NCBI GenBank assembly: GCA_023664955.1
Contig: JAMPEV010000001.1
Span: 836,572 to 900,571, forward strand
DNA: 64,000 bases
Reading direction: 5' to 3'
DNA from: Duncaniella sp.
GTDB taxonomy: Bacteria > Bacteroidota > Bacteroidia > Bacteroidales > Muribaculaceae
Below the pieces are notes generated by a model that was given only the letters and a program-made list of their open reading frames with translations, searched no databases and was not told the origin of the DNA. Below, one piece after another: positions 1-42,401 of this stretch; the stretch's first letter is position 1; each line of letters begins with the position of its first letter. The translations under genes and the position numbers were made by a program.

Positions 1-2
1 AT

Positions 3-92
3 AATGCGGCTATCTCTCTTCTCGATATTTTCGATACGTTTAAATCTTTTCGCTCTTCTCGCGACAGATTGATTCTTTACACTTTGCGATAA
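3..92 (+). CDS. Possible C-terminal end of an upstream gene (partial)
   Basis: Reading from base 3, an open frame of 29 codons enters from the left edge and stops with TAA at 90-92. The residues (..LLDIFDTFKSF..RDRLILYTLR) look like an ordinary C-terminus, while the other two plus frames are less protein-like and also close early. No family can be named from so little. It may be chance. Confidence 0.3.
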   Translation, partial: NAAISLLDIFDTFKSFRSSRDRLILYTLR

Positions 93-218: not shown

Positions 219-620
219 ATGCTATCTCTTATCGAAACTCGTAACCGTCACTTTATGAACGCCTGTTCAGAAATCATTAAAAACACACACAGTCCGCTTA
301 AACTCCGAGAAGTGGCACTACAGGCAGCAATGTCGCCGGCACCACACTATTACTGTACCTTCGAGTATGCCCTGCGCATGCTGCGAGTGCTTCGCCACAA
401 TCGCCTCAAACTCCGGAATGACCGTCGCCTGGCTCTATGGAAAGAGCTTCTCGGCAAAGTTGAAGGACTTATGGAACGTAGAGGCTACAAGTTGACGGAT
501 GCTTTGTCACATGTACTTTGCTCATGCAGTGCATCGCAATTCTTCATCTCTCCATCCACCGCTTATCGTTTGGCTTACGAAGTGGGATGTAGCGAACTCC
601 ACTGCCGCAAGCTCTCATGA
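219..620 (+). CDS. Uncharacterised Bacteroidales protein, 133 aa
   Basis: The family is not recognised. The protein is rich in Arg, Leu and Cys, has no signal peptide or membrane segment, and looks all-helical. A central stretch (YALRMLRVLRHNRLKLR, about residues 51-67) is strongly basic. The last 35 residues (SASQFFISPSTAYRLAYEVG) resemble the recognition helix of a DNA-binding fold, but this is only an impression. The start is supported by a -7 box 46 nt upstream. Its stop overlaps an ATG of the next frame, so the two are probably co-transcribed. Confidence 0.55.
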   Translation: MLSLIETRNRHFMNACSEIIKNTHSPLKLREVALQAAMSPAPHYYCTFEYALRMLRVLRHNRLKLRNDRRLALWKELLGKVEGLMERRGYKLTDALSHVLCSCSASQFFISPSTAYRLAYEVGCSELHCRKLS

Positions 621-670
621 CCTGTAGTTTATCAGTCTGCTCACTTTTAATACCACAACTTCAATTCACC

Positions 671-1135
671 ATGAACTATTCAATCTCCGTTACCTCGATA
701 ATCGAAACTATGCAAGCTGTAGCATCCCTTTACCTGCTTTCAAACGCCGGATGTAACAGCGCAATAGTAGCAAGCCTTTTCCCCGAGCGGCGCGAACTTC
801 TCGAATCACTCGTCAAGGACGCTTTTGCAGAGACACTTATTGAAATGCTCCCCTATGTCGACGATTCTAACATTGACGATGCTGAATCGGATGAAATACT
901 CCGATTTTCAATCGGGGCTTTCGACAAACTCCCACAAGGCGTTCACTCAATAATCCGCCGCAACATCGAGCAGTCGCTCGCCTATCGCATCATACATTTA
1001 TGCCTCCTATCCTCTCAGGAAAAGTCTATCGGTACTATCACCATCGAGGAAATCGCCCGAAAATCCACTTGCTTCCTCGACTCAGCCCTAACTCTCATCC
1101 ACACAGCCCAAACCCCTGCCCCATTCATCCGATAA
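671..1135 (+). CDS. Uncharacterised helical protein, 154 aa
   Basis: The family is not recognised. The frame is open from an ATG at 617 that overlaps the previous stop (ATGA). The first 18 residues from that start look like translated spacer, so the ATG at 671 is preferred; 617 remains possible and would give translational coupling. The protein is predicted soluble and mostly helical, with an acidic middle (DDSNIDDAESDE, about residues 72-83). It sits 51 nt after the preceding small gene and is probably its operon partner. Confidence 0.5.
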   Translation: MNYSISVTSIIETMQAVASLYLLSNAGCNSAIVASLFPERRELLESLVKDAFAETLIEMLPYVDDSNIDDAESDEILRFSIGAFDKLPQGVHSIIRRNIEQSLAYRIIHLCLLSSQEKSIGTITIEEIARKSTCFLDSALTLIHTAQTPAPFIR

Positions 1136-1249: not shown

Positions 1250-1279
1250 TAAGTTCTTTTGAAAACTAACAACAAGATA

Positions 1280-3385
1280 ATGGCTGATTTCCAATATATC
1301 CGCATAGCTTTCCGTGGAGAGGTCCAGGATGCCACCTGCACAATCTACTCTTACCCTAATCCCGCCCAACCCACAACACACGTTCCCTCTACCGACACGG
1401 AGGAAACACCCTCAGCACCCAATGTGAACAGTCAGCACACTCTCCCACGGGAGGAGACTGACTCCACGACCAGTGCTGATGTTCAACAGGCACCCAGATG
1501 GGAGGAGATTTTAGTTGAGCCGGTAGCGGCTATAAAAAGGTTTCTCAACGCCACTGACTGCTATATCATGCAGTCGCACCCCTCAGGTCACTATTTTTCG
1601 CTCATCACGCGCGACACCATGGACACTTCCCATGGATATGTGATGATTACAATGCAGCTCGACAATGGATGTTCCCTCACAGGCCGTCAGATTTTGAGCG
1701 TGTTCAATTCCCTCAAACGGTCATTTATCGAAGAGAATGCTCTATCGGACCAGGCTGTGGATACTGCCCTCCACCAAGCTTCCGTGCCAGTTAAGCCCGT
1801 GCGGCTTGAGTCGTGGACCTACCACGCTCCCCAGGAGGGTACTGAGTTAGCTGAGGCGGCCTACCGAACTTATATTTCCGTCCAGGAGCTTGAGACAATC
1901 TTCTCATTTCCATCACAGCCAGAGTATGCCCCTTACCGATGCGTCATCATCGTTTCGGCTGCAAGCACCTTGCGTCCGGGCGTGAAAATGCCACGAATCA
2001 CATCCCGGGTGCGCAAACTTTACACTGTGGTGTGCCCTGAGGGGGTGGTAGCGTCTTCAACACAAGTGTTTGACGGCGACCGTCTTACCCTGACTTATTC
2101 CAAGACCGGGTTCAATAGCCACACAGAGACTGTTACCGCCGGCTCACCTTCGGCCTATATCAAAAATGACGGCTCTACCATTCAGGTCCGCACATCATCG
2201 CAGACCGGAATCAGGTTTATCCGCCGGGTGAAAATCAGAATACTCTCCACCAAGGGCAACGATGTCAATGGTTACACAATCTCAGTGAATGGGAATCCCA
2301 TCAACACGATGGAGCCGTTCATCGAATTTACGGAGCGTGATCTGACACCCGGCGAAGAGGTGGAAATTCAAGTGGCTTCCAATAATTACCAGCCATTGAA
2401 ACTCAAAAAACCGTCGGAGGAGATTTTGAGCACCGAAAGTCTCGACCTTATCCTCCGCCCAATAGAACAAGAGGTGACATTGCGCCTCAACTTTGGCGAT
2501 GACCGAGTGTTTGAGGAGCAAATCTCTATCGAAAAGAACACGCCTGAATATAATCGTCTCCATTCCGGCAATTTCCACGGCTTCCGCGCCCACCGACAAG
2601 TCACTCAGGACGATAGTGAGGTGTACAATGTAGATGTCCGTATAACATCACGCCCGGTGGCGCCCAATTTTGAGTGCTGCGCGACCGGTGAAGAATCACC
2701 CGCAAGTCATGCGCCTGTTTTTGAGAAGGTGGACAATGTCAGCGAGGATGATTTGCCACGTGAACGCAAGGCTTCGTTGCGCAACGTCCCCCCCACCGTG
2801 TTTGAGAATGCCAGCGATGATGACGATAACAGCGGCATGGATGAGGGAATGTTCCCAAGCCCATGGTACCGCAAGTCATGGCTTTGGGTAATCATAGCGA
2901 TAATACTGGTGGGCATAGTTACCTCCGTATACTATATGGATTTCGGAAACCCAGCTAAGCCCGCACCTGAGGCGCCCAACGCACTTAGCACCGACACTGT
3001 GACATCACAACCCCTGCCCGTTGTGACTGGAGAAGAACAGATTGATATCGACTATCTCAATTCTTATCCGGTGTGGGAGGTGGAGAAACTCCGCTCCTCC
3101 ATGGCCAAAGAGCTTATTGCGGCCATCAATGCCGGCGACATAGATGCCGTGGTAAACAATCCCTATTTCAAGGTCAAAGGACGGTGTACTAACCGTGATG
3201 CTAACATGATTGCCGATATGATATGGCGAGCAAAAAATTCCCACAGCGAGAGTTCCAATAAGCGTCTTTTACGTTCGGCAGTGAAGAATGGCACAATTTC
3301 GGTTCATGAACTTGCCGATGATCTCGCCAAGCGACGTCCCGCAGAGAAAGAGAACACCGCACCTCGTCCATCATCAGCAAATTAG
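1280..3385 (+). CDS. Large single-pass membrane protein of unknown function, 701 aa
   Basis: No function is recognised. From the ATG at 1280 the protein has a cytoplasmic-looking N-terminal part with no signal peptide. A middle of beta-rich repeats follows, reminiscent of PEGA-type or carboxypeptidase-regulatory-like domains (about residues 240-450). There is one clear transmembrane segment (WLWVIIAIILVGIVTSVYY, about residues 534-552) and a C-terminal part of about 150 residues with a conserved-looking helical region. The layout suggests a tail-anchored or type II protein with a large N-terminal domain inside the cell. A start at 1259 is possible, but the promoter at 1242-1249 argues against it. 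A good terminator follows at 3456-3493. Confidence 0.65.
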   Translation: MADFQYIRIAFRGEVQDATCTIYSYPNPAQPTTHVPSTDTEETPSAPNVNSQHTLPREETDSTTSADVQQAPRWEEILVEPVAAIKRFLNATDCYIMQSHPSGHYFSLITRDTMDTSHGYVMITMQLDNGCSLTGRQILSVFNSLKRSFIEENALSDQAVDTALHQASVPVKPVRLESWTYHAPQEGTELAEAAYRTYISVQELETIFSFPSQPEYAPYRCVIIVSAASTLRPGVKMPRITSRVRKLYTVVCPEGVVASSTQVFDGDRLTLTYSKTGFNSHTETVTAGSPSAYIKNDGSTIQVRTSSQTGIRFIRRVKIRILSTKGNDVNGYTISVNGNPINTMEPFIEFTERDLTPGEEVEIQVASNNYQPLKLKKPSEEILSTESLDLILRPIEQEVTLRLNFGDDRVFEEQISIEKNTPEYNRLHSGNFHGFRAHRQVTQDDSEVYNVDVRITSRPVAPNFECCATGEESPASHAPVFEKVDNVSEDDLPRERKASLRNVPPTVFENASDDDDNSGMDEGMFPSPWYRKSWLWVIIAIILVGIVTSVYYMDFGNPAKPAPEAPNALSTDTVTSQPLPVVTGEEQIDIDYLNSYPVWEVEKLRSSMAKELIAAINAGDIDAVVNNPYFKVKGRCTNRDANMIADMIWRAKNSHSESSNKRLLRSAVKNGTISVHELADDLAKRRPAEKENTAPRPSSAN

Positions 3386-24959: not shown

Positions 24960-25025
24960 ATATATAATTCTTATGAATCTTATGAAACTTATAAGTCTTA
25001 TAAGTCCTATAAGTCACATAAATAT
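24960..25025. repeat. Tandem TATAAGTC-type repeats
   Basis: Five imperfect units with a 9-10 bp period (..CTTATGAAACTTATAAGTCTTATAAGTCC, then TATAAGTCACATAAATATT) lie in the gap between ribH and the DUF2851 gene. The same words recur at 40220-40290, also between two minus-strand genes. Confidence 0.65.
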
Positions 25026-38329: not shown

Positions 38330-39586
38330 TTATTTACCGGCGGGCACAACTCGCATATGGGCCTCGGGATAACGTAGCACAAGGCATGACGCTTCGGTGA
38401 GCACAGTGGCTTCGGTGTTTCTCACGCCTTGACTGCGGAAACTGATTCGGTCGGCAGTGAAGGGCACATGTGAGTATTTGGTCAGATACTCGGGATCTAT
38501 TATCATTCCGCTCCCTTCCATGCCGCAAAGGTCGAAAATCTCGGAATGTGCCACGTAGAGTGTGCCGAATTTCGACACAATCTTGTTGAAGTTCACTCCC
38601 CATATTGTCTCGCTATCGTTGGCTGAGATGCTGCGGGTATATTCGAGATTGCTGAGTGTCTCGATGAGGTTGGAACCCGCCACAAGCACTTTTCTCACTG
38701 ATCCGGCACCCCCGGTAAAGGCTTTGCGCATCATCGAAATGAGACTTTTTGAGTCCATCGTTGCCGGATTGTAGGCAAATTCCCTATCAGTCTGGTGCCA
38801 TATCCCTTTGGTGAAATAAATCTCATCGTTGGGATTGAGAGGAGAGGGCATGCGGTTCAACGAACCGAAGAGGAATGATTTCTCCATACCAAGGCGCATG
38901 TCAATGATGGCTACTTCCTCTTGGTCAGAGAATGACCATCCGACTTCTTTGTCGGCGAGGCGATGGTAGAGTGACTCCTCAATCTGCGCTTTGAAAATCT
39001 GACAGTAGTTGTAGGCTTTTTTGGGTAGTGCGGTATATTGTGAGGTCTGCACATCGAGCTCGCCGGCTGCTCGTCCCATTCTCACCACTTTGTCCCCCTT
39101 GGCGATTTCAGGAAGTTCGATTTCCTCTTCATCGGAAGACTGGGTACATTTTACTGTTAATGTCGAACCATTTATGTCGGTGATGAAACCGACCACGGGG
39201 AAACCGGCAAAGGGATCGGCGGTAAATTTATTGGCAGGAAACATGATAGTCTCTGACACAGAGAAGATTCTCACATCCTTAACCTCAACTTTGAAAACGT
39301 TGTCGGAGGAGAAGTCACTGCCGACCACGCTAACTACCTCGCTGTAGGACGGTTTAGTATCCACCGAATAGTAGTCAACCCTCATTGAGCCGGAATGACG
39401 CGCTCCGGCAAGGCGTGAGATTTGATCGATGGGGGTTGATGTCGGACGAATTTTTGTGATTCGTTCATCCACCTCACTGCGGAGTATCTCAGGCGCGATT
39501 GTGGAGGTTTGACGCACTGTCATTGGAGCGTTGGAGATGTGTTCTCCATGGTTTGTGGATGCGATGACGCTTGTTGAATTGTTCAT
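38330..39586 (-). CDS. Orphan phage-type major capsid protein (SU10 / DUF5309, HK97 fold)
   Basis: 418 aa. The sequence follows the SU10-type capsid family: ERITKIRPTSTPIDQISRLA (about 41-60), GSMRVDYYSVDTKP, RMGRAAGELDVQTSQYTALP, ADKEVGWSFSDQEEVAIIDM, FGTLYVAHSEIFDLCGM, IIDPEYLTKYSHVPF (about 362-376) and CLVLRYPEAHMRVVP at the end. Homologues form the icosahedral shell of tailed phages. No terminase, portal, protease, tail or integrase gene lies nearby; neighbours are the FKBP genes and rlmN. The frame is uninterrupted, so it is not simply decaying. It is 71 nt downstream of the repeat protein and probably co-transcribed with it. Alternatives: prophage remnant, transfer agent component or encapsulin-like compartment. 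Confidence 0.78.
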   Translation of the reverse strand: MNNSTSVIASTNHGEHISNAPMTVRQTSTIAPEILRSEVDERITKIRPTSTPIDQISRLAGARHSGSMRVDYYSVDTKPSYSEVVSVVGSDFSSDNVFKVEVKDVRIFSVSETIMFPANKFTADPFAGFPVVGFITDINGSTLTVKCTQSSDEEEIELPEIAKGDKVVRMGRAAGELDVQTSQYTALPKKAYNYCQIFKAQIEESLYHRLADKEVGWSFSDQEEVAIIDMRLGMEKSFLFGSLNRMPSPLNPNDEIYFTKGIWHQTDREFAYNPATMDSKSLISMMRKAFTGGAGSVRKVLVAGSNLIETLSNLEYTRSISANDSETIWGVNFNKIVSKFGTLYVAHSEIFDLCGMEGSGMIIDPEYLTKYSHVPFTADRISFRSQGVRNTEATVLTEASCLVLRYPEAHMRVVPAGK

Positions 39587-39657
39587 GGTAATTCTAATTG
39601 TTTAATAAATGAAATTTGTGTGTGTTAATGGTTGTGTGTGAAGAGACGTCGTTGTCA

Positions 39658-40125
39658 TTAAATGCTCCATACACTTCGACGGTTACGTAAGAGAACTTGA
39701 GAAGTGGGATCAGGTGCAATTGCAGCCGGACTCTCTGAATGTCGTGTGTTTTCATAGCGCAGAAGCTCGAATGGACGAAGTGGTGTTTTTGTCAGGTGAT
39801 TAGATTTTGATGAGGTTTGGGGTGAATCAGCAGTTTGAACGGGATCAATAGACGTATCGGAATCAGCAGTTTGAACGGGATCAATAGACGTATCGGAATC
39901 AGCAGTTTGAACGGGATCAATGGGAAGATCGGAATCAGCGGCTTGAACGAAGTCAATTGGCTGAGAGGAGTTATTGACTTGAATAGAATCAGTGGCATTA
40001 GCGGAATCAGCAATAATGTTTTCGCTGTCTTGAATAAGCTCGCTGACCTCGGTGAGCCCTGAGATGTCAGAGAGATCGGTTATGTCATAATTATGTGTTT
40101 CTACACGGGGTTCGATTGTTTCCAT
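39658..40125 (-). CDS. Acidic tandem-repeat protein paired with the capsid gene
   Basis: 155 aa, no recognised family. The N-terminal 50 residues are acidic with I/L spacing (ITDLSDISGLTEVSELIQD). Four 12-residue units of the type DPVQTADSDTSI follow (about residues 53-101). The last 45 residues turn basic and aromatic (TPLRPFELLRYENTRH, LLRNRRSVWSI). No signal peptide or membrane segment. An acidic flexible protein with a basic tail directly before a capsid gene recalls phage scaffolding or an encapsulated cargo, but this is inference from position only. The promoter at 40171-40164 is 39 nt upstream. Confidence 0.6.
   Translation of the reverse strand: METIEPRVETHNYDITDLSDISGLTEVSELIQDSENIIADSANATDSIQVNNSSQPIDFVQAADSDLPIDPVQTADSDTSIDPVQTADSDTSIDPVQTADSPQTSSKSNHLTKTPLRPFELLRYENTRHSESPAAIAPDPTSQVLLRNRRSVWSI
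39824..39967. repeat. Four tandem 36-bp units coding the 12-aa repeat
   Basis: Units at 39824-39859, 39860-39895, 39896-39931 and 39932-39967. The first two are identical over 36 bp, the third differs near its end and the fourth at about ten positions, as in a tract growing by recent duplication at one side. The unit is a multiple of three, so the frame is kept. Confidence 0.85.
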
Positions 40126-40163
40126 GATTTTATCTTAAATGGGGTTATGAATGATTGACAATG

Positions 40164-40171
40164 CAAAATTA
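40164..40171 (-). promoter_or_regulatory. Minus-strand -7 box TAATTTTG before the repeat/capsid pair
   Basis: CAAAATTA on the plus strand; on the minus strand TAATTTTG is 39 nt before the ATG at 40125. The same box type precedes housekeeping genes here, so the pair is probably read by the host RNA polymerase. Confidence 0.55.
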
Positions 40172-40214
40172 CAATCACCAAAACCCCATAAAAGTGCGAT
40201 AAAATCAAAAACGG

Positions 40215-40290
40215 CTTATAAATTTTAATAAGTCTTAGAAATCTTATAAGTCCTATAAATATTATAATTCTTATAAGTCCTATAATCTTA
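40215..40290. repeat. Tandem TATAAGTC-type repeats, second site
   Basis: AATAAGTCTTAGAAATCTTATAAGTCC, then TATAAATATTATAATTCTTATAAGTCC and TATAATCTTATAG. Same words and 9-10 bp period as at 24960-25025. Confidence 0.65.
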
Positions 40291-41367
40291 TAGATTTTGT
40301 AATTCTCCCCCTTTCCCACTGAGCATTCCGCAAGCGGCTTCAATATCTTCGCCGCGCGACGTGCGGATAGTGGCGGTAATCCCCTTGTCGTTCAGTCGGT
40401 CACGGAATGCTTCCATCGTGCGTGTGTCGGCTGTGATATGGTCAAATCCAGGGATGGCATGAAAGCGAATCAGATTTACCCGGCAGTCCACCCCCTTGAG
40501 CATCACCGCCAATGCATCGGCATGGTGGAAGTCGTCGTTTACGCCTTTCCACATTATATACTCGGCCGATAGCCTGCGCTGGTGAGCAAAGTCGTAATTT
40601 TTAAGCTCGGCGATAACCTTTCGTAGTGGGAATGCCTTTTCAACCGGCATAAGTCCCTCTCGTTCAGATGTAAATGGTGAGTGTACACTTATTGCCACAT
40701 GCACTTTTGTTTCGTTTAGCAGGCGGCGAAGTCCGTCCAATTTTCCGATTGATGACACTGTGATGCGCTTCGGACTCCATGCCAATCCCCACTTTGCCGT
40801 CAATATGTCAATGGCTTTGAGCACCTCATCGATATTATCCATCGGCTCGCCCATCCCCATAAAAACGATATTAGTGAGCTTCTCGCTCTCAGGAATCGAC
40901 AGTATCTGATTTAGTATCCCGGCCGCTGTCAGGCTTCCATGGAATCCCTGCATCCCTGTCATACAAAAACGGCATCCCATTTTACATCCCGCCTGCGAAG
41001 ACACACATAGTGTGGCACGCTCTTTATCAGGAATATACACAGCTTCCACATCTCTTCTGCCTTTCCCGTTTACGAGGAAATCAAAACCTTCGCCGCGTGT
41101 GGCAAATAGATACTTAACCGTACCGTCCGCAGAATGTGATGCCATCTTTGGCTCAACACGCCCTACTCTATAATTATCATTCAAATACTCTCGAGCCACC
41201 TTCGACAAATCTGTCATTTCGTCAATCGAAGACACACGCTTCTCATAAAGCCAGCGCGCCATCTGCTTTGCCGCAAACGGCCGCATACCCGCCTTCTCAG
41301 CCACGCTCCTCAATTCCTCAAGTGTCATCCCGATCAGCGGTCGGAGTATCTTACTTTCCTTGTCCAT
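40288..41367 (-). CDS. rlmN: 23S rRNA (adenine-2503-C2)-methyltransferase
   Basis: Radical-SAM enzyme that methylates A2503 of 23S rRNA (and A37 of some tRNAs). The cluster motif CKMGCRFC lies near residue 128, GMGEPMDN (SAM-binding GEP) near 172, and the catalytic Cys pair is completed by the C-terminal Cys in EAACGML. LSAEYIMWKGVND and RFHAIPG are also family marks. It has the normal length, 359 aa. The start MDKESKILRPLIGMTLEEL is plausible; a second Met lies 12 residues in. It is 15 nt downstream of the methyltransferase gene's stop, so the two may share a transcript. Confidence 0.95.
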   Translation of the reverse strand: MDKESKILRPLIGMTLEELRSVAEKAGMRPFAAKQMARWLYEKRVSSIDEMTDLSKVAREYLNDNYRVGRVEPKMASHSADGTVKYLFATRGEGFDFLVNGKGRRDVEAVYIPDKERATLCVSSQAGCKMGCRFCMTGMQGFHGSLTAAGILNQILSIPESEKLTNIVFMGMGEPMDNIDEVLKAIDILTAKWGLAWSPKRITVSSIGKLDGLRRLLNETKVHVAISVHSPFTSEREGLMPVEKAFPLRKVIAELKNYDFAHQRRLSAEYIMWKGVNDDFHHADALAVMLKGVDCRVNLIRFHAIPGFDHITADTRTMEAFRDRLNDKGITATIRTSRGEDIEAACGMLSGKGGELQNL

Positions 41368-41382
41368 ATCCTAACAAAACGG

Positions 41383-42381
41383 CTAAATATTACATTTTCT
41401 CACTGTTTCCTTGATTTTTAATGCAAGGTGATAGGCTAAATTGACCGGAACGGCATTCCCTATCATTTTATAACCATAGTTCAAGTCGGTATATATAAAT
41501 TTATAATCATCAGGGAAACTTTGCACCCGGGCCGCTTCCCTGACGGTTAGTAGCCGATAAAGGTGTTCGCTTCCTTTCACAAACGCCTGAAGATTGCCAT
41601 TAATCTTCTCCATTTTGGGTGCTTGGGGATGGAGTTGACATTGCCTGCCGCTTGCTTGTACAGTGAAACCTGGCTCATCCCAGCTCCTTACGCGATTCCT
41701 TGACATGAATATCGTTGAGAATGAGCCGATAAAGTATTCATGATTAGCCACAATACATTTATCTCCATTCGTTTTATTCTTTTCTAAAGCTGGAATTGCA
41801 CTGTCTTTTAGATCCCAAATGGCATCTCGCAGTGTTTGTTTGTAAGCAACAGGTGCTGGATATTCAAATTCATTGATTCCCAAATCCTTCCTAAAACCTA
41901 CGTAGAATACTCTATCGCGGTCTTCCGGAACGTCATAATCTTTTGCATTAAGCATCTTAAGGCTGACATAATATCCCGCTTCGTCAAACATTTTCAAGAA
42001 CGATGACACTGCTTCTGAATTTCTTTTGGCAAGCATCCCCGAAACATTTTCGGCAACAAAAAACAAAGGTTGTTTGTCTCTGAGAATTCGAATATATTCA
42101 TAAAACAGCTGTCCCCGAGGATCTTTAATACCCCTGAGCGCACCACCCTCACTCCAAGATTGGCAAGGCGGCCCTCCTATGATTCCGGTGATATTATCAG
42201 GAAATTCCGATGAATGAATTTTTCTGATATCTCCTTCGATAAGCTTTACATCAGGGAAATTAGCACGAAAAGTAGGGCAAATTTTTTTATCATACTCGTC
42301 CGCGACGACTGTATTGAATCCGGCATTATGGAATCCCTTGTCCAATCCTCCGGCTCCGGAAAATAAACTAATCAAATTCAT
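41383..42381 (-). CDS. Orphan DNA cytosine-5 methyltransferase, M.HaeIII-like
   Basis: C5-cytosine DNA methyltransferase of 332 aa. Motif [16 protein letters not shown], motif [14 protein letters not shown] (catalytic Cys), motif [11 protein letters not shown], motif [16 protein letters not shown] and motif [15 protein letters not shown]. The target-recognising part ([20 protein letters not shown], then [17 protein letters not shown]) matches M.HaeIII almost word for word from memory, so GGCC with methylation of the inner C is predicted. The ATG at 42381 (MNLISLFSG) is the HaeIII-like start; 42390 is possible. No restriction endonuclease gene adjoins it. It may guard against a lost or foreign HaeIII system, or regulate genes. 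Confidence 0.92.
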
Positions 42382-42401
42382 TATTTCCATCTACAATTTA
42401 A

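What the first reader, a model, noticed from the sequence alone, without database searches (positions are those of the whole stretch)
38330..40171. Stand-alone SU10-type major capsid gene with a repeat-protein partner and its own promoter
The 418-aa product follows the SU10/DUF5309 capsid family through its whole length, with no stop or frameshift. Yet no other phage gene is visible within tens of kilobases; neighbours are folding, rRNA-modification and CAZyme genes. It is preceded on the same strand by a 155-aa acidic protein and a host-type -7 box. Phage capsids retained alone are known in the encapsulin nanocompartments, which derive from other HK97 families. An SU10-type shell kept by a Bacteroidales host, with the acidic protein as scaffold or cargo, would be a new compartment. 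A prophage reduced to its last intact gene is the plain alternative.
Basis: partly seen in the sequence, partly recalled or inferred. Interest (0 to 1): 0.9.

Follow-up and report, generated by a model that had tools for sequence, protein, structure and literature searches.

The report
Dispersed capsid genes, likely gene-transfer agent
The lone phage shell gene is one piece of a scattered set of phage head, DNA-packaging and cell-lysis genes that this group of gut bacteria has kept and controls with one shared type of promoter, which looks like an unrecognised machine for packaging bacterial DNA.

Summary
The ORF at 38330-39586(-) is an intact SU10-type major capsid gene (PF17236, E 6.8e-47). 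The 155-aa partner is a shrunken scaffold-like protein with a conserved C-terminal tail. The gene is not alone. Portal, adaptor, TerS-like and c28 genes lie across the window's left edge; TerL and c94 lie 8-12 kb beyond its right edge; a holin and an endolysin gene lie elsewhere.

Capsid, portal and TerL homologues each occur in 57-59 of 61 sampled family genomes, with dN/dS 0.06-0.16 in close pairs. The set also occurs in 25 genomes of six other Bacteroidales families. A promoter model from relatives' capsid operons ranks this genome's capsid, TerL and portal operons 1-3 in about 300 kb; similar sites precede holin and endolysin genes. TerL keeps its motor and nuclease motifs.

Best reading: a domesticated, dispersed podovirus-type element making DNA-packaging particles, i.e. 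gene-transfer-agent-like. A capsid-only compartment and a decaying prophage are disfavoured. Expression, packaging, release and delivery are inferred, not shown. My paper searches (listings; four papers opened) showed no Bacteroidota GTA.

The parts
1..92 (+). 3' end of the portal gene (whole gene C11:835371-836663; 430 aa; phage homologues about 620-680 aa)
   Evidence: P22_portal PF16510 E 1e-12
219..620 (+). c21, 133 aa: TerS-like by position only (a related phage family, c14, sits next to TerL)
   Evidence: homologue in prophage-like locus L096 E 3e-8; follows portal or TerL in relatives; c21 and c14 profiles cross-match; no PHROG hit for this copy
617..1135 (+). c28, 172 aa: last recognised gene of the portal operon, function unknown
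   Evidence: follows c21 in relatives, and follows TerL and c21 in L140; no PHROG hit
38330..39586 (-). SU10-type major capsid protein, 418 aa
   Evidence: purifying selection in close relatives
39658..40125 (-). scaffold-like acidic protein, 155 aa, with C-terminal tail RNRRSVWSI
   Evidence: C-terminal motif in 45 of 50 chromosomal loci and 7 of 8 prophage-type loci; 50 of 818 control ORFs
39824..39949 (-). 36-bp tandem repeat (12-aa acidic repeats) inside the scaffold-like gene; this part varies between relatives
40162..40201 (-). shared promoter type of the capsid operon: TATCGCAC, then TAATTTTGCA, 30 nt start to start

Best explanation
The capsid gene belongs to a domesticated podovirus-type particle system whose genes are dispersed along the chromosome and co-regulated by one promoter type. 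In this genome the loci are: scaffold-MCP (window 38330-40125); adaptor-portal-c21-c28 (C11:834.6k to window 1135); c94-TerL (C11:908.3k-912.3k); a holin (C11:700698-701060); and an endolysin (C14, about 58.1 kb). Proposed working: under an unknown signal a regulator or alternative sigma factor recognises TATCGCAC-N22-TAnnTTTG and switches on the operons. The scaffold assembles MCP around the portal. TerL with a TerS-like protein packs chromosomal DNA. Adaptor and c94 close the vertex as a short tail. Holin and amidase lyse the producing cell. Shown here: gene content, dispersal, vertical inheritance, purifying selection, retained TerL motifs and the shared promoter sequence. Inferred: expression, particle formation, packaging of random host DNA, lysis and delivery to other cells.
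For: (1) Distribution: MCP in 59 of 61 family genomes, TerL 57 of 61, portal 57 of 61, against 57 of 61 for RlmN as a core-gene control. Six other families: MCP in 25 genomes, TerL in 25 of 25 and portal in 24 of 25 of these, away from MCP. (2) One clade of chromosomal MCPs (39 rows, support 99/92), apart from a 33-row phage/prophage clade (100/99) and four other prophage-type rows. (3) A fumarase gene (PF05683 E 1.1e-87) lies divergently upstream of the capsid operon in 9 of 10 fetched loci, from 5 of the 6 other families. (4) Distance correlation with RlmN: rho 0.70 for MCP (28 genomes), 0.65 portal (19), 0.75 TerL (12), Mantel p 0.001 each. (5) dN/dS 0.06-0.15 in the 8 closest MCP pairs; TerL and portal alike. 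(6) TerL keeps LKARQWGGST, VVMESTANG, CVDIGGRS, ESN and HDD. (7) Promoter model from 17 relatives, own genome excluded: the top 3 of 1494 segments over about 300 kb are the MCP (33.4), c94-TerL (28.8) and portal (27.7) operons; 99th percentile 11.2. In the genus loci scored, c94 operons 7 of 7 and adaptor operons 10 of 11 reach 21; control genes 1 of 170 reach 18. (8) The promoter type also precedes holin genes (exact site in 8 genomes; 12 of 16 further upstreams reach 18) and Amidase_2 genes (own genome, G009, G015). (9) In the own genome the three structural loci are flanked by host genes: RlmN and FKBP; ThiF/radical SAM; AsnC-type regulator and RimP-NusA.
Against: No expression, particle or DNA-transfer data. 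TerL was not found in G004 and G031 (both 99% complete) and only as fragments in G003, so some members may lack packaging. No receptor-binding tail protein was found in this genus; fibre-like frames are seen in the other families by inspection only, and the one tested gave no Pfam family above cut-off and no PHROG. MCP frames are short in G013 and G026. The holin was found in 21 of 27 genus genomes, one copy (G010) with a stop inside. 6 of 27 genomes have no exact promoter match. The motif also precedes genes of unknown role and occurs up to 19 times per genome, partly as near-identical repeats. Outside the genus the promoter score falls off. Adaptor, TerS-like and c94 roles rest on position and weak similarity.
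Confidence: 0.72

Rival explanations
1. DNA-packaging killer particle: the same dispersed, co-regulated particle exists, but like PBSX of Bacillus it packs host DNA, lyses the producer and harms neighbours without delivering genes.
For: Same gene set and shared promoter type with lysis genes. No delivery function can be read from sequence. PBSX is described as packaging random host DNA without transfer (PMC7667829, passages read).
Against: I recognised no toxin or receptor-binding gene in the set, but did not search for toxins. Nothing here separates it positively from a gene transfer agent.
Confidence: 0.17
2. Capsid-based protein compartment (encapsulin-like), with the acidic partner as cargo or scaffold.
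For: The scaffold-MCP pair is a very constant unit. A short conserved C-terminal tail resembles in form an encapsulin cargo peptide.
Against: Portal and TerL are retained in almost the same genomes with TerL motifs intact, and portal, TerL and holin genes share the capsid promoter type. The C-terminal tail is also present in prophage-type scaffolds (7 of 8), so it is a phage assembly feature.
Confidence: 0.06
3. Decaying prophage remnants, each gene drifting.
For: The portal is shorter than phage portals, the scaffold has shrunk, and a few genomes lack single genes.
Against: dN/dS 0.06-0.16 in close pairs, near-universal open frames in one family and presence in six others, and promoters conserved at three separate operons.
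Confidence: 0.03
4. Mobile capsid-forming satellite or repeated insertion of related prophages.
For: Prophage-type loci with related MCPs exist in some of the same genomes (L094, L095, L097, L099-L101). One promoter site (L340) precedes a frame that looks like a tyrosine recombinase (recalled, not tested).
Against: L094, L095, L097, L099 and L100 fall outside the chromosomal clade (L101 was not in the tree), and the eight prophage-type loci lack the promoter (best score 5.4). Chromosomal copies track RlmN distances. The tested flanks in the own genome are host genes; flanks in relatives were not annotated systematically.
Confidence: 0.02

Closest known systems
FpGTA of Faecalibacterium (PMC12946183, outline and passages read)
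   Same: Podovirus-like set, two operons about 125 kb apart, TerS-TerL-portal-scaffold-MCP, described as near-ubiquitous in Faecalibacterium, gut commensal.
   Different: Different phylum. I did not compare the sequences. Here the set is split into more and smaller loci, with a recognisable shared promoter. FpGTA particles are experimentally shown; these are not.
RcGTA and other alphaproteobacterial GTAs (PMC9662315, passages read)
   Same: Caudoviricete-derived genes fixed in host genomes, in part across several loci, vertically inherited.
   Different: The RcGTA structural genes sit mainly in one cluster (recalled). Here capsid, portal and TerL lie apart in this genus. I did not compare the sequences.
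Bacteroides phages BF1-TP2, BS-TP4, BKO1-TP3
   Same: MCP about 34% identical in all three; for BF1-TP2 and BS-TP4 also TerL, portal and c94 homologues.
   Different: Complete 64-68 kb phages. Portals of BF1-TP2 and BS-TP4 are about 620-660 aa and BS-TP4 gp26, the c94 homologue, about 900 aa, against 430 and 721 aa here.
Encapsulins
   Same: A phage-type capsid kept by the host, with a partner that has a short conserved C-terminal tail.
   Different: Encapsulin operons do not keep portal, terminase and lysis genes (recalled).
PBSX-type defective prophages (PMC7667829, passages)
   Same: Packs host DNA in phage-like particles.
   Different: A single prophage cluster (recalled); here the genes are dispersed.

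Membership tests
Gene transfer agent (criteria of PMC9662315, passages read) | Caudoviricete-derived proteins | tested here: met
   SU10_MCP E 6.8e-47, P22_portal E 1e-12, TerL by PHROG (G047 copy, phrog_2 E 1.3e-16; the own copy has no Pfam hit, but matches phage TerL at E 3.5e-130)
Gene transfer agent | Fully endogenised, often across multiple loci | tested here: met
   Three structural loci plus holin and endolysin loci in the own genome; separate loci in the one-contig genome G349
Gene transfer agent | Mostly vertical inheritance, co-diversification with hosts | tested here: met
   Distance correlations with RlmN; one chromosomal clade; same fumarase neighbour in 9 of 10 loci of other families
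Gene transfer agent | Particles package mostly random host DNA | not testable with these tools
   Only intact TerL motifs
Gene transfer agent | Own gene set cannot be fully packaged | not testable with these tools
   Head capacity unknown; in this genome the loci span more than 200 kb of C11 plus another contig
Gene transfer agent | DNA delivered to other cells | not testable with these tools
   No assay
SU10-type major capsid protein (PF17236) | Match above the curated cut-off over most of the protein | tested here: met
   160.8 bits against cut-off 24.1, residues 33-413; PDB 9in6 'major capsid of VP1' E 1.8e-13 with profile A4
Encapsulin nanocompartment | Capsid kept without packaging machinery | tested here: not met
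   Portal and TerL kept, with the same promoter type
Encapsulin nanocompartment | Forms closed protein shells with enzyme cargo | not testable with these tools
   Structure prediction switched off
Intact or recently decayed prophage | Contiguous phage genes at the locus | tested here: not met
   Own genome: the three structural loci lie between host genes. The 708-aa frame after c28 (window 1259-3385) has no Pfam or PHROG match and stays open

The most novel reading that the evidence does not exclude
A functional gene transfer agent, fixed once in a common ancestor of at least seven Bacteroidales families, whose head, packaging and lysis genes have been scattered over the chromosome while one dedicated promoter keeps them a single regulon. 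It would move chromosomal DNA between cells of Muribaculaceae.
Probability: 0.55. Interest if true: 0.96.

Novelty: new variant of a known kind. Interest (0 to 1): 0.9.

Why it matters
If true, it is a GTA-like system in Bacteroidota, which I did not find described in the searches named below, and it is close to universal in a family that dominates the mouse gut (recalled). It would offer a cellular route for chromosomal gene exchange. It might also explain some host-DNA packaging seen in mouse-gut particle sequencing: one study reports 46 contigs with generalised-transduction or GTA-like coverage, and, counted separately, 83 contigs with any transduction-type pattern classified as Bacteroidetes (PMC7667829, passages). 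I did not see which of the 46 are Bacteroidetes, so that link is my inference. The shared promoter makes the idea directly testable by RNA-seq, and promoter-guided searches could reveal more scattered systems of this kind.

Tried and rejected
Rejected readings: nanocompartment, decaying prophage, mobile satellite (see rivals). c94 as a tail nozzle was tested by PDB profile searches and Pfam: nothing for the phage-type profile and the own c94, and only three chance-level PDB matches. It stays a guess, helped only by the phage homologue BS-TP4 gp26 matching 'internal virion protein' phrog_511 at E 4.4e-4 and 'virion structural protein' phrog_3287 at E 1.6e-3. Pfam gave no family for the adaptor of this genome, and PHROG gave only a family of unknown function for it and none for c21 or c28.

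Names I first gave by eye and then tested: fumarase confirmed; amidase of G009 and G015 confirmed; the 'M15 peptidase' of G316 and the 'holin' of G127, named in my note, gave no Pfam family, so I dropped them.

Corrections to my notes: holin in 21 of 27 genus genomes, not 22 (note); one search lists only part of the genomes without a match, so 'all sampled genomes of the six families' (note) is not claimed; the site label 'RlmN..FKBP' (note) fits only this genome on the RlmN side, since in the relatives whose positions I compared RlmN lies elsewhere. In one search two rows labelled F1 (L091, L092) belong to families f22 and f28.

Paper searches for a Bacteroidota, Bacteroidales or Muribaculaceae GTA or retained capsid. 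I saw titles and abstract starts of capped lists (for example 20 of 47, 15 of 666, 12 of 15) and opened passages of four papers (PMC12946183, PMC9662315, PMC7667829, PMC10892684). None of what I saw describes one; the library holds open-licence papers only.
Full report
Observation. The 418-codon frame at 38330-39586(-) is intact and is an SU10-type major capsid protein (PF17236, 160.8 bits against a cut-off of 24.1, residues 33-413). A profile of the family also matches the solved 'major capsid of VP1' 9in6 (E 1.8e-13). The 155-aa partner at 39658-40125(-) holds a 36-bp repeat. The capsid gene has one match in the 2.18-Mb, 21-contig, 82.7% complete genome.

It is not alone. Homologues of phage portal, adaptor and c21 were found just left of and inside the window's first 0.6 kb, with c28 following. 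Homologues of TerL and of a phage virion-type protein (c94) lie past the right edge. In genome coordinates: adaptor frame C11:834648-835367, portal 835371-836663, c21 = window 219-620, c28 = window 617-1135; c94 908266-910431 and TerL 910428-912275 (4-nt overlap). The window is C11:836572-900571. The tested neighbours are host genes: ThiF and a radical-SAM BATS protein before the adaptor, a DNA polymerase III tau/gamma-type gene two frames after c28 (the 708-aa frame between, window 1259-3385, has no Pfam or PHROG match), an AsnC-type regulator before c94, RimP and NusA after TerL, and RlmN and FKBP around the capsid operon.

The same genes in relatives. MCP homologues occur in 59 of 61 genomes of the family and 3 of 40 other genomes of the order. 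In G055 the only match is weak, and in G024, G013 and G026 partial. TerL: 57 of 61 and 3 of 40. Portal: 57 of 61 and 3 of 40. The core gene RlmN, as control: 57 of 61 in the family. The misses are G027 and G051 for MCP; G004, G027, G031 and G051 for TerL; G024, G037, G044 and G051 for portal. Of 50 chromosomal MCP loci examined, 14, none in the window's genus, have the portal within the next four frames, 12 of them with the adaptor too; several continue with c21 and c28. In G047 (L077), c94-TerL stands just before the scaffold, so the eight genes lie within about 10.5 kb. A 9.4-kb contig filed as viral (L207) shows c94-TerL-scaffold-MCP-adaptor-portal and the start of c21 (adaptor, scaffold and c21 by inspection). 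In the window's genus the capsid pair sits at four or more different places, four of them shared by 2 to 9 of the species examined. In G038, c21 and c28 follow TerL, so they belong to the set.

Beyond the family. Over 393 genomes of the order, a profile of chromosomal MCPs (A6; 24 rows, two of them from families f22 and f28) matched 33: 6 of the family, 25 of six other families with a best match of 589 bits or more (two of them, G194 and G290, also hold a second, weaker copy), and 2 weaker prophage-type ones. In these 25, TerL was found in 25 and portal in 24, away from MCP. In the one-contig genome G349 portal, MCP and TerL lie at 1148867, 1395210 and 1427270. In 9 of 10 fetched MCP loci there, from five of the six families, a fumarase gene (PF05683 E 1.1e-87, PF05681 E 7.1e-79) lies divergently upstream of the capsid operon; the exception is G367 of f22. 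This points to one fixation event in their common ancestor. In most of these ten loci I could find a scaffold frame of about 250-280 aa ending in RRRRSVWDL or similar. Long fibre-like frames follow in several; the one tested has no Pfam family above cut-off and no PHROG, and two frames that looked like lysis genes have no Pfam family.

One origin, vertical, selected. In a tree of 76 MCPs the chromosomal copies form one clade with support 99/92; it also holds five sequences from viral contigs (L207, L209, L210, L211 and the long-branched L036, whose place is unsure). Thirty-three phage and prophage rows form a separate clade with support 100/99, and four other prophage-type rows lie outside both. 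Distances of MCP, portal and TerL correlate with RlmN distances (rho 0.70, 0.65, 0.75; 28, 19, 12 genomes; Mantel p 0.001 each). Within the genus the correlations are weaker (0.58 for MCP, 22 genomes; 0.42, p 0.026, for portal, 13 genomes). dN/dS in the eight closest pairs is 0.058-0.145 for MCP; in those measurable, 0.079-0.140 for portal (7 pairs) and 0.087-0.157 for TerL (7 pairs). For RlmN it is 0.048-0.071. Only the closest MCP pairs have unsaturated dS. TerL of this genome keeps LKARQWGGST, VVMESTANG, CVDIGGRS, ESN and HDD, which I read, from established knowledge of terminases, as the ATPase and nuclease residues.

The partner protein. Upstream frames end in a tail such as RRSVWD in 45 of 50 chromosomal loci; misses are L054 (cut by the contig end), L072 (a variant RRDIWD), L085, L088 and L111. 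The same tail type ends 7 of 8 prophage-type scaffolds (SIFD, SIWD and the like). 50 of 818 other frames match the loose pattern. Prophage-type scaffolds with the motif are 245-275 aa; family copies shrink to as little as 58 aa. The acidic repeats are thus the variable part and the tail is the kept part. I infer that the tail binds the capsid during assembly.

The promoter. Upstream of the capsid operons of the genus stands TATCGCAC, 30 nt start-to-start before TAnnTTTGCA, with some variation. The pattern occurs once in the window, 0 in 100 shuffles, and 7 times in the whole genome, with 0 for the reversed control. Two of the seven are the MCP and c94-TerL operons. A weight matrix from 17 relatives' capsid promoters, own genome left out, was run over this genome's window and twelve 20-kb stretches on both strands (304 kb with about 4 kb of overlap; 1494 segments). 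It put the MCP, c94-TerL and adaptor-portal operons first, second and third (33.4, 28.8, 27.7; fourth 19.9; 99th percentile 11.2). Of the genus loci scored, 7 of 7 c94 operons reach 24 and 10 of 11 adaptor operons reach 21 (12 portal loci were given; in one no adaptor frame was found). The exception is G001, where a 137-aa frame, at about the place of the holin gene, precedes the adaptor. One of 170 control genes reaches 18, and the eight prophage-type loci reach at most 5.4. Outside the genus the match is weaker (best 23.8, most below 18).

Other members of the regulon. The genome's site on C14 precedes a 136-aa amidase (Amidase_2 E 3.7e-12, phrog_822 E 3.5e-55), and sites in G009 and G015 precede Amidase_2 frames too (E 1.9e-15 and 3.3e-16). 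Sites in G008 and G015 precede holin-like genes (Phage_holin_4_1, 21.8 and 24.8 bits against a cut-off of 22.2, so the first is just below). The holin is found in 21 of 27 genus genomes, this one included (C11:700698-701060). In 8 genomes an exact site lies close upstream (G002, G008, G011, G015, G020, G021, G024, G025; the list is cut). Of 16 further holin upstreams fetched, four of them from other genera, 12 reach 18, the own genome 18.8; the G005 site is about 330 nt from the gene. Four of 20 further sites precede an ATPase-like frame; the three tested whole match AAA_25 (E 1.8e-13 to 2.2e-19) and have helix-turn-helix matches at the C-terminus. Four precede a small unknown family (inspection). 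One lies before a frame that looks like gyrase A, one before a frame that looks like a tyrosine recombinase (both recalled), and some have no plausible gene behind them. Exact matches per genus genome range from 0 (6 of 27) to 19, partly near-identical copies, so the promoter type is not exclusive to particle genes.

Mechanism and verdict. A shared promoter type before capsid, portal, packaging motor, holin and endolysin genes, dispersed but conserved, is the logic of a gene transfer agent. Three of the six published GTA attributes (PMC9662315, passages read) are met; the three that need experiments are open. The closest known case is FpGTA of Faecalibacterium (PMC12946183, outline and passages), also podovirus-like and split into two loci. 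In the passages I read, that paper reports lateral transduction, not a GTA, in Bacteroides. A PBSX-like killer particle cannot be excluded. Absence of TerL in G004 and G031 and the lack of a known receptor-binding gene in this genus speak for caution.

Noticed in passing
L341, L342, L343, L120 (own genome), L354 (G015): A multi-copy family of about 230-300 aa proteins under the same promoter type (grouped by inspection). The one copy tested (L354) aligns weakly with the N-terminal ATPase part of TerL (8.4 bits) at a place where the Walker motif is lost; possibly TerL-derived decoys or regulators. L341 has no Pfam or PHROG family above cut-off.
   Followed up: partly
17 of 58 MCP frames, e.g. 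L085, L092, L094; also the phage MCP in L114: Many relatives' capsid proteins, phage-type and chromosomal, carry a strongly hydrophobic segment near the N-terminus that the window's protein lacks. A membrane-anchored capsid precursor would be unusual.
   Followed up: partly
L098 (G055): This genome's only MCP match is a distant one. It lies in a compact cassette of TerS-like, scaffold, MCP, 98-aa, adaptor, TerL and portal frames of another lineage, with non-phage-looking genes on both sides (inspection): possibly an independent replacement of the set.
   Followed up: no
L349, L356, L363 (and L358, not tested): AAA_25 ATPases with a C-terminal helix-turn-helix follow the same promoter type in G009, G015 and G020; possible DNA-processing or regulatory members.
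   Followed up: partly
L207-L210: Contigs filed as viral in IMG/VR that carry the chromosomal type of the set; probably bacterial chromosome mis-sorted as virus.
   Followed up: partly
window 1259-3385(+): A 708-aa frame (TTG start) right after c28 without any Pfam or PHROG match; host gene or unrecognised member of the set.
   Followed up: partly
window 41383-42390(-): C-5 cytosine DNA methylase (PF00145 E 8.7e-96) beside RlmN, two genes upstream of the capsid operon; no link to the set was seen.
   Followed up: no
window 40215-40292 and 24963-25021: AT-rich 9-bp repeats (CTTATAAGT type); one array lies just upstream of the capsid promoter.
   Followed up: no
L211 (IMGVR_UViG_2681813420_000001): A 27.5-kb contig whose MCP falls inside the chromosomal clade and which keeps TerL, c14/c21-type, scaffold, MCP, adaptor and further frames together: a candidate for the undispersed ancestral form.
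   Followed up: partly
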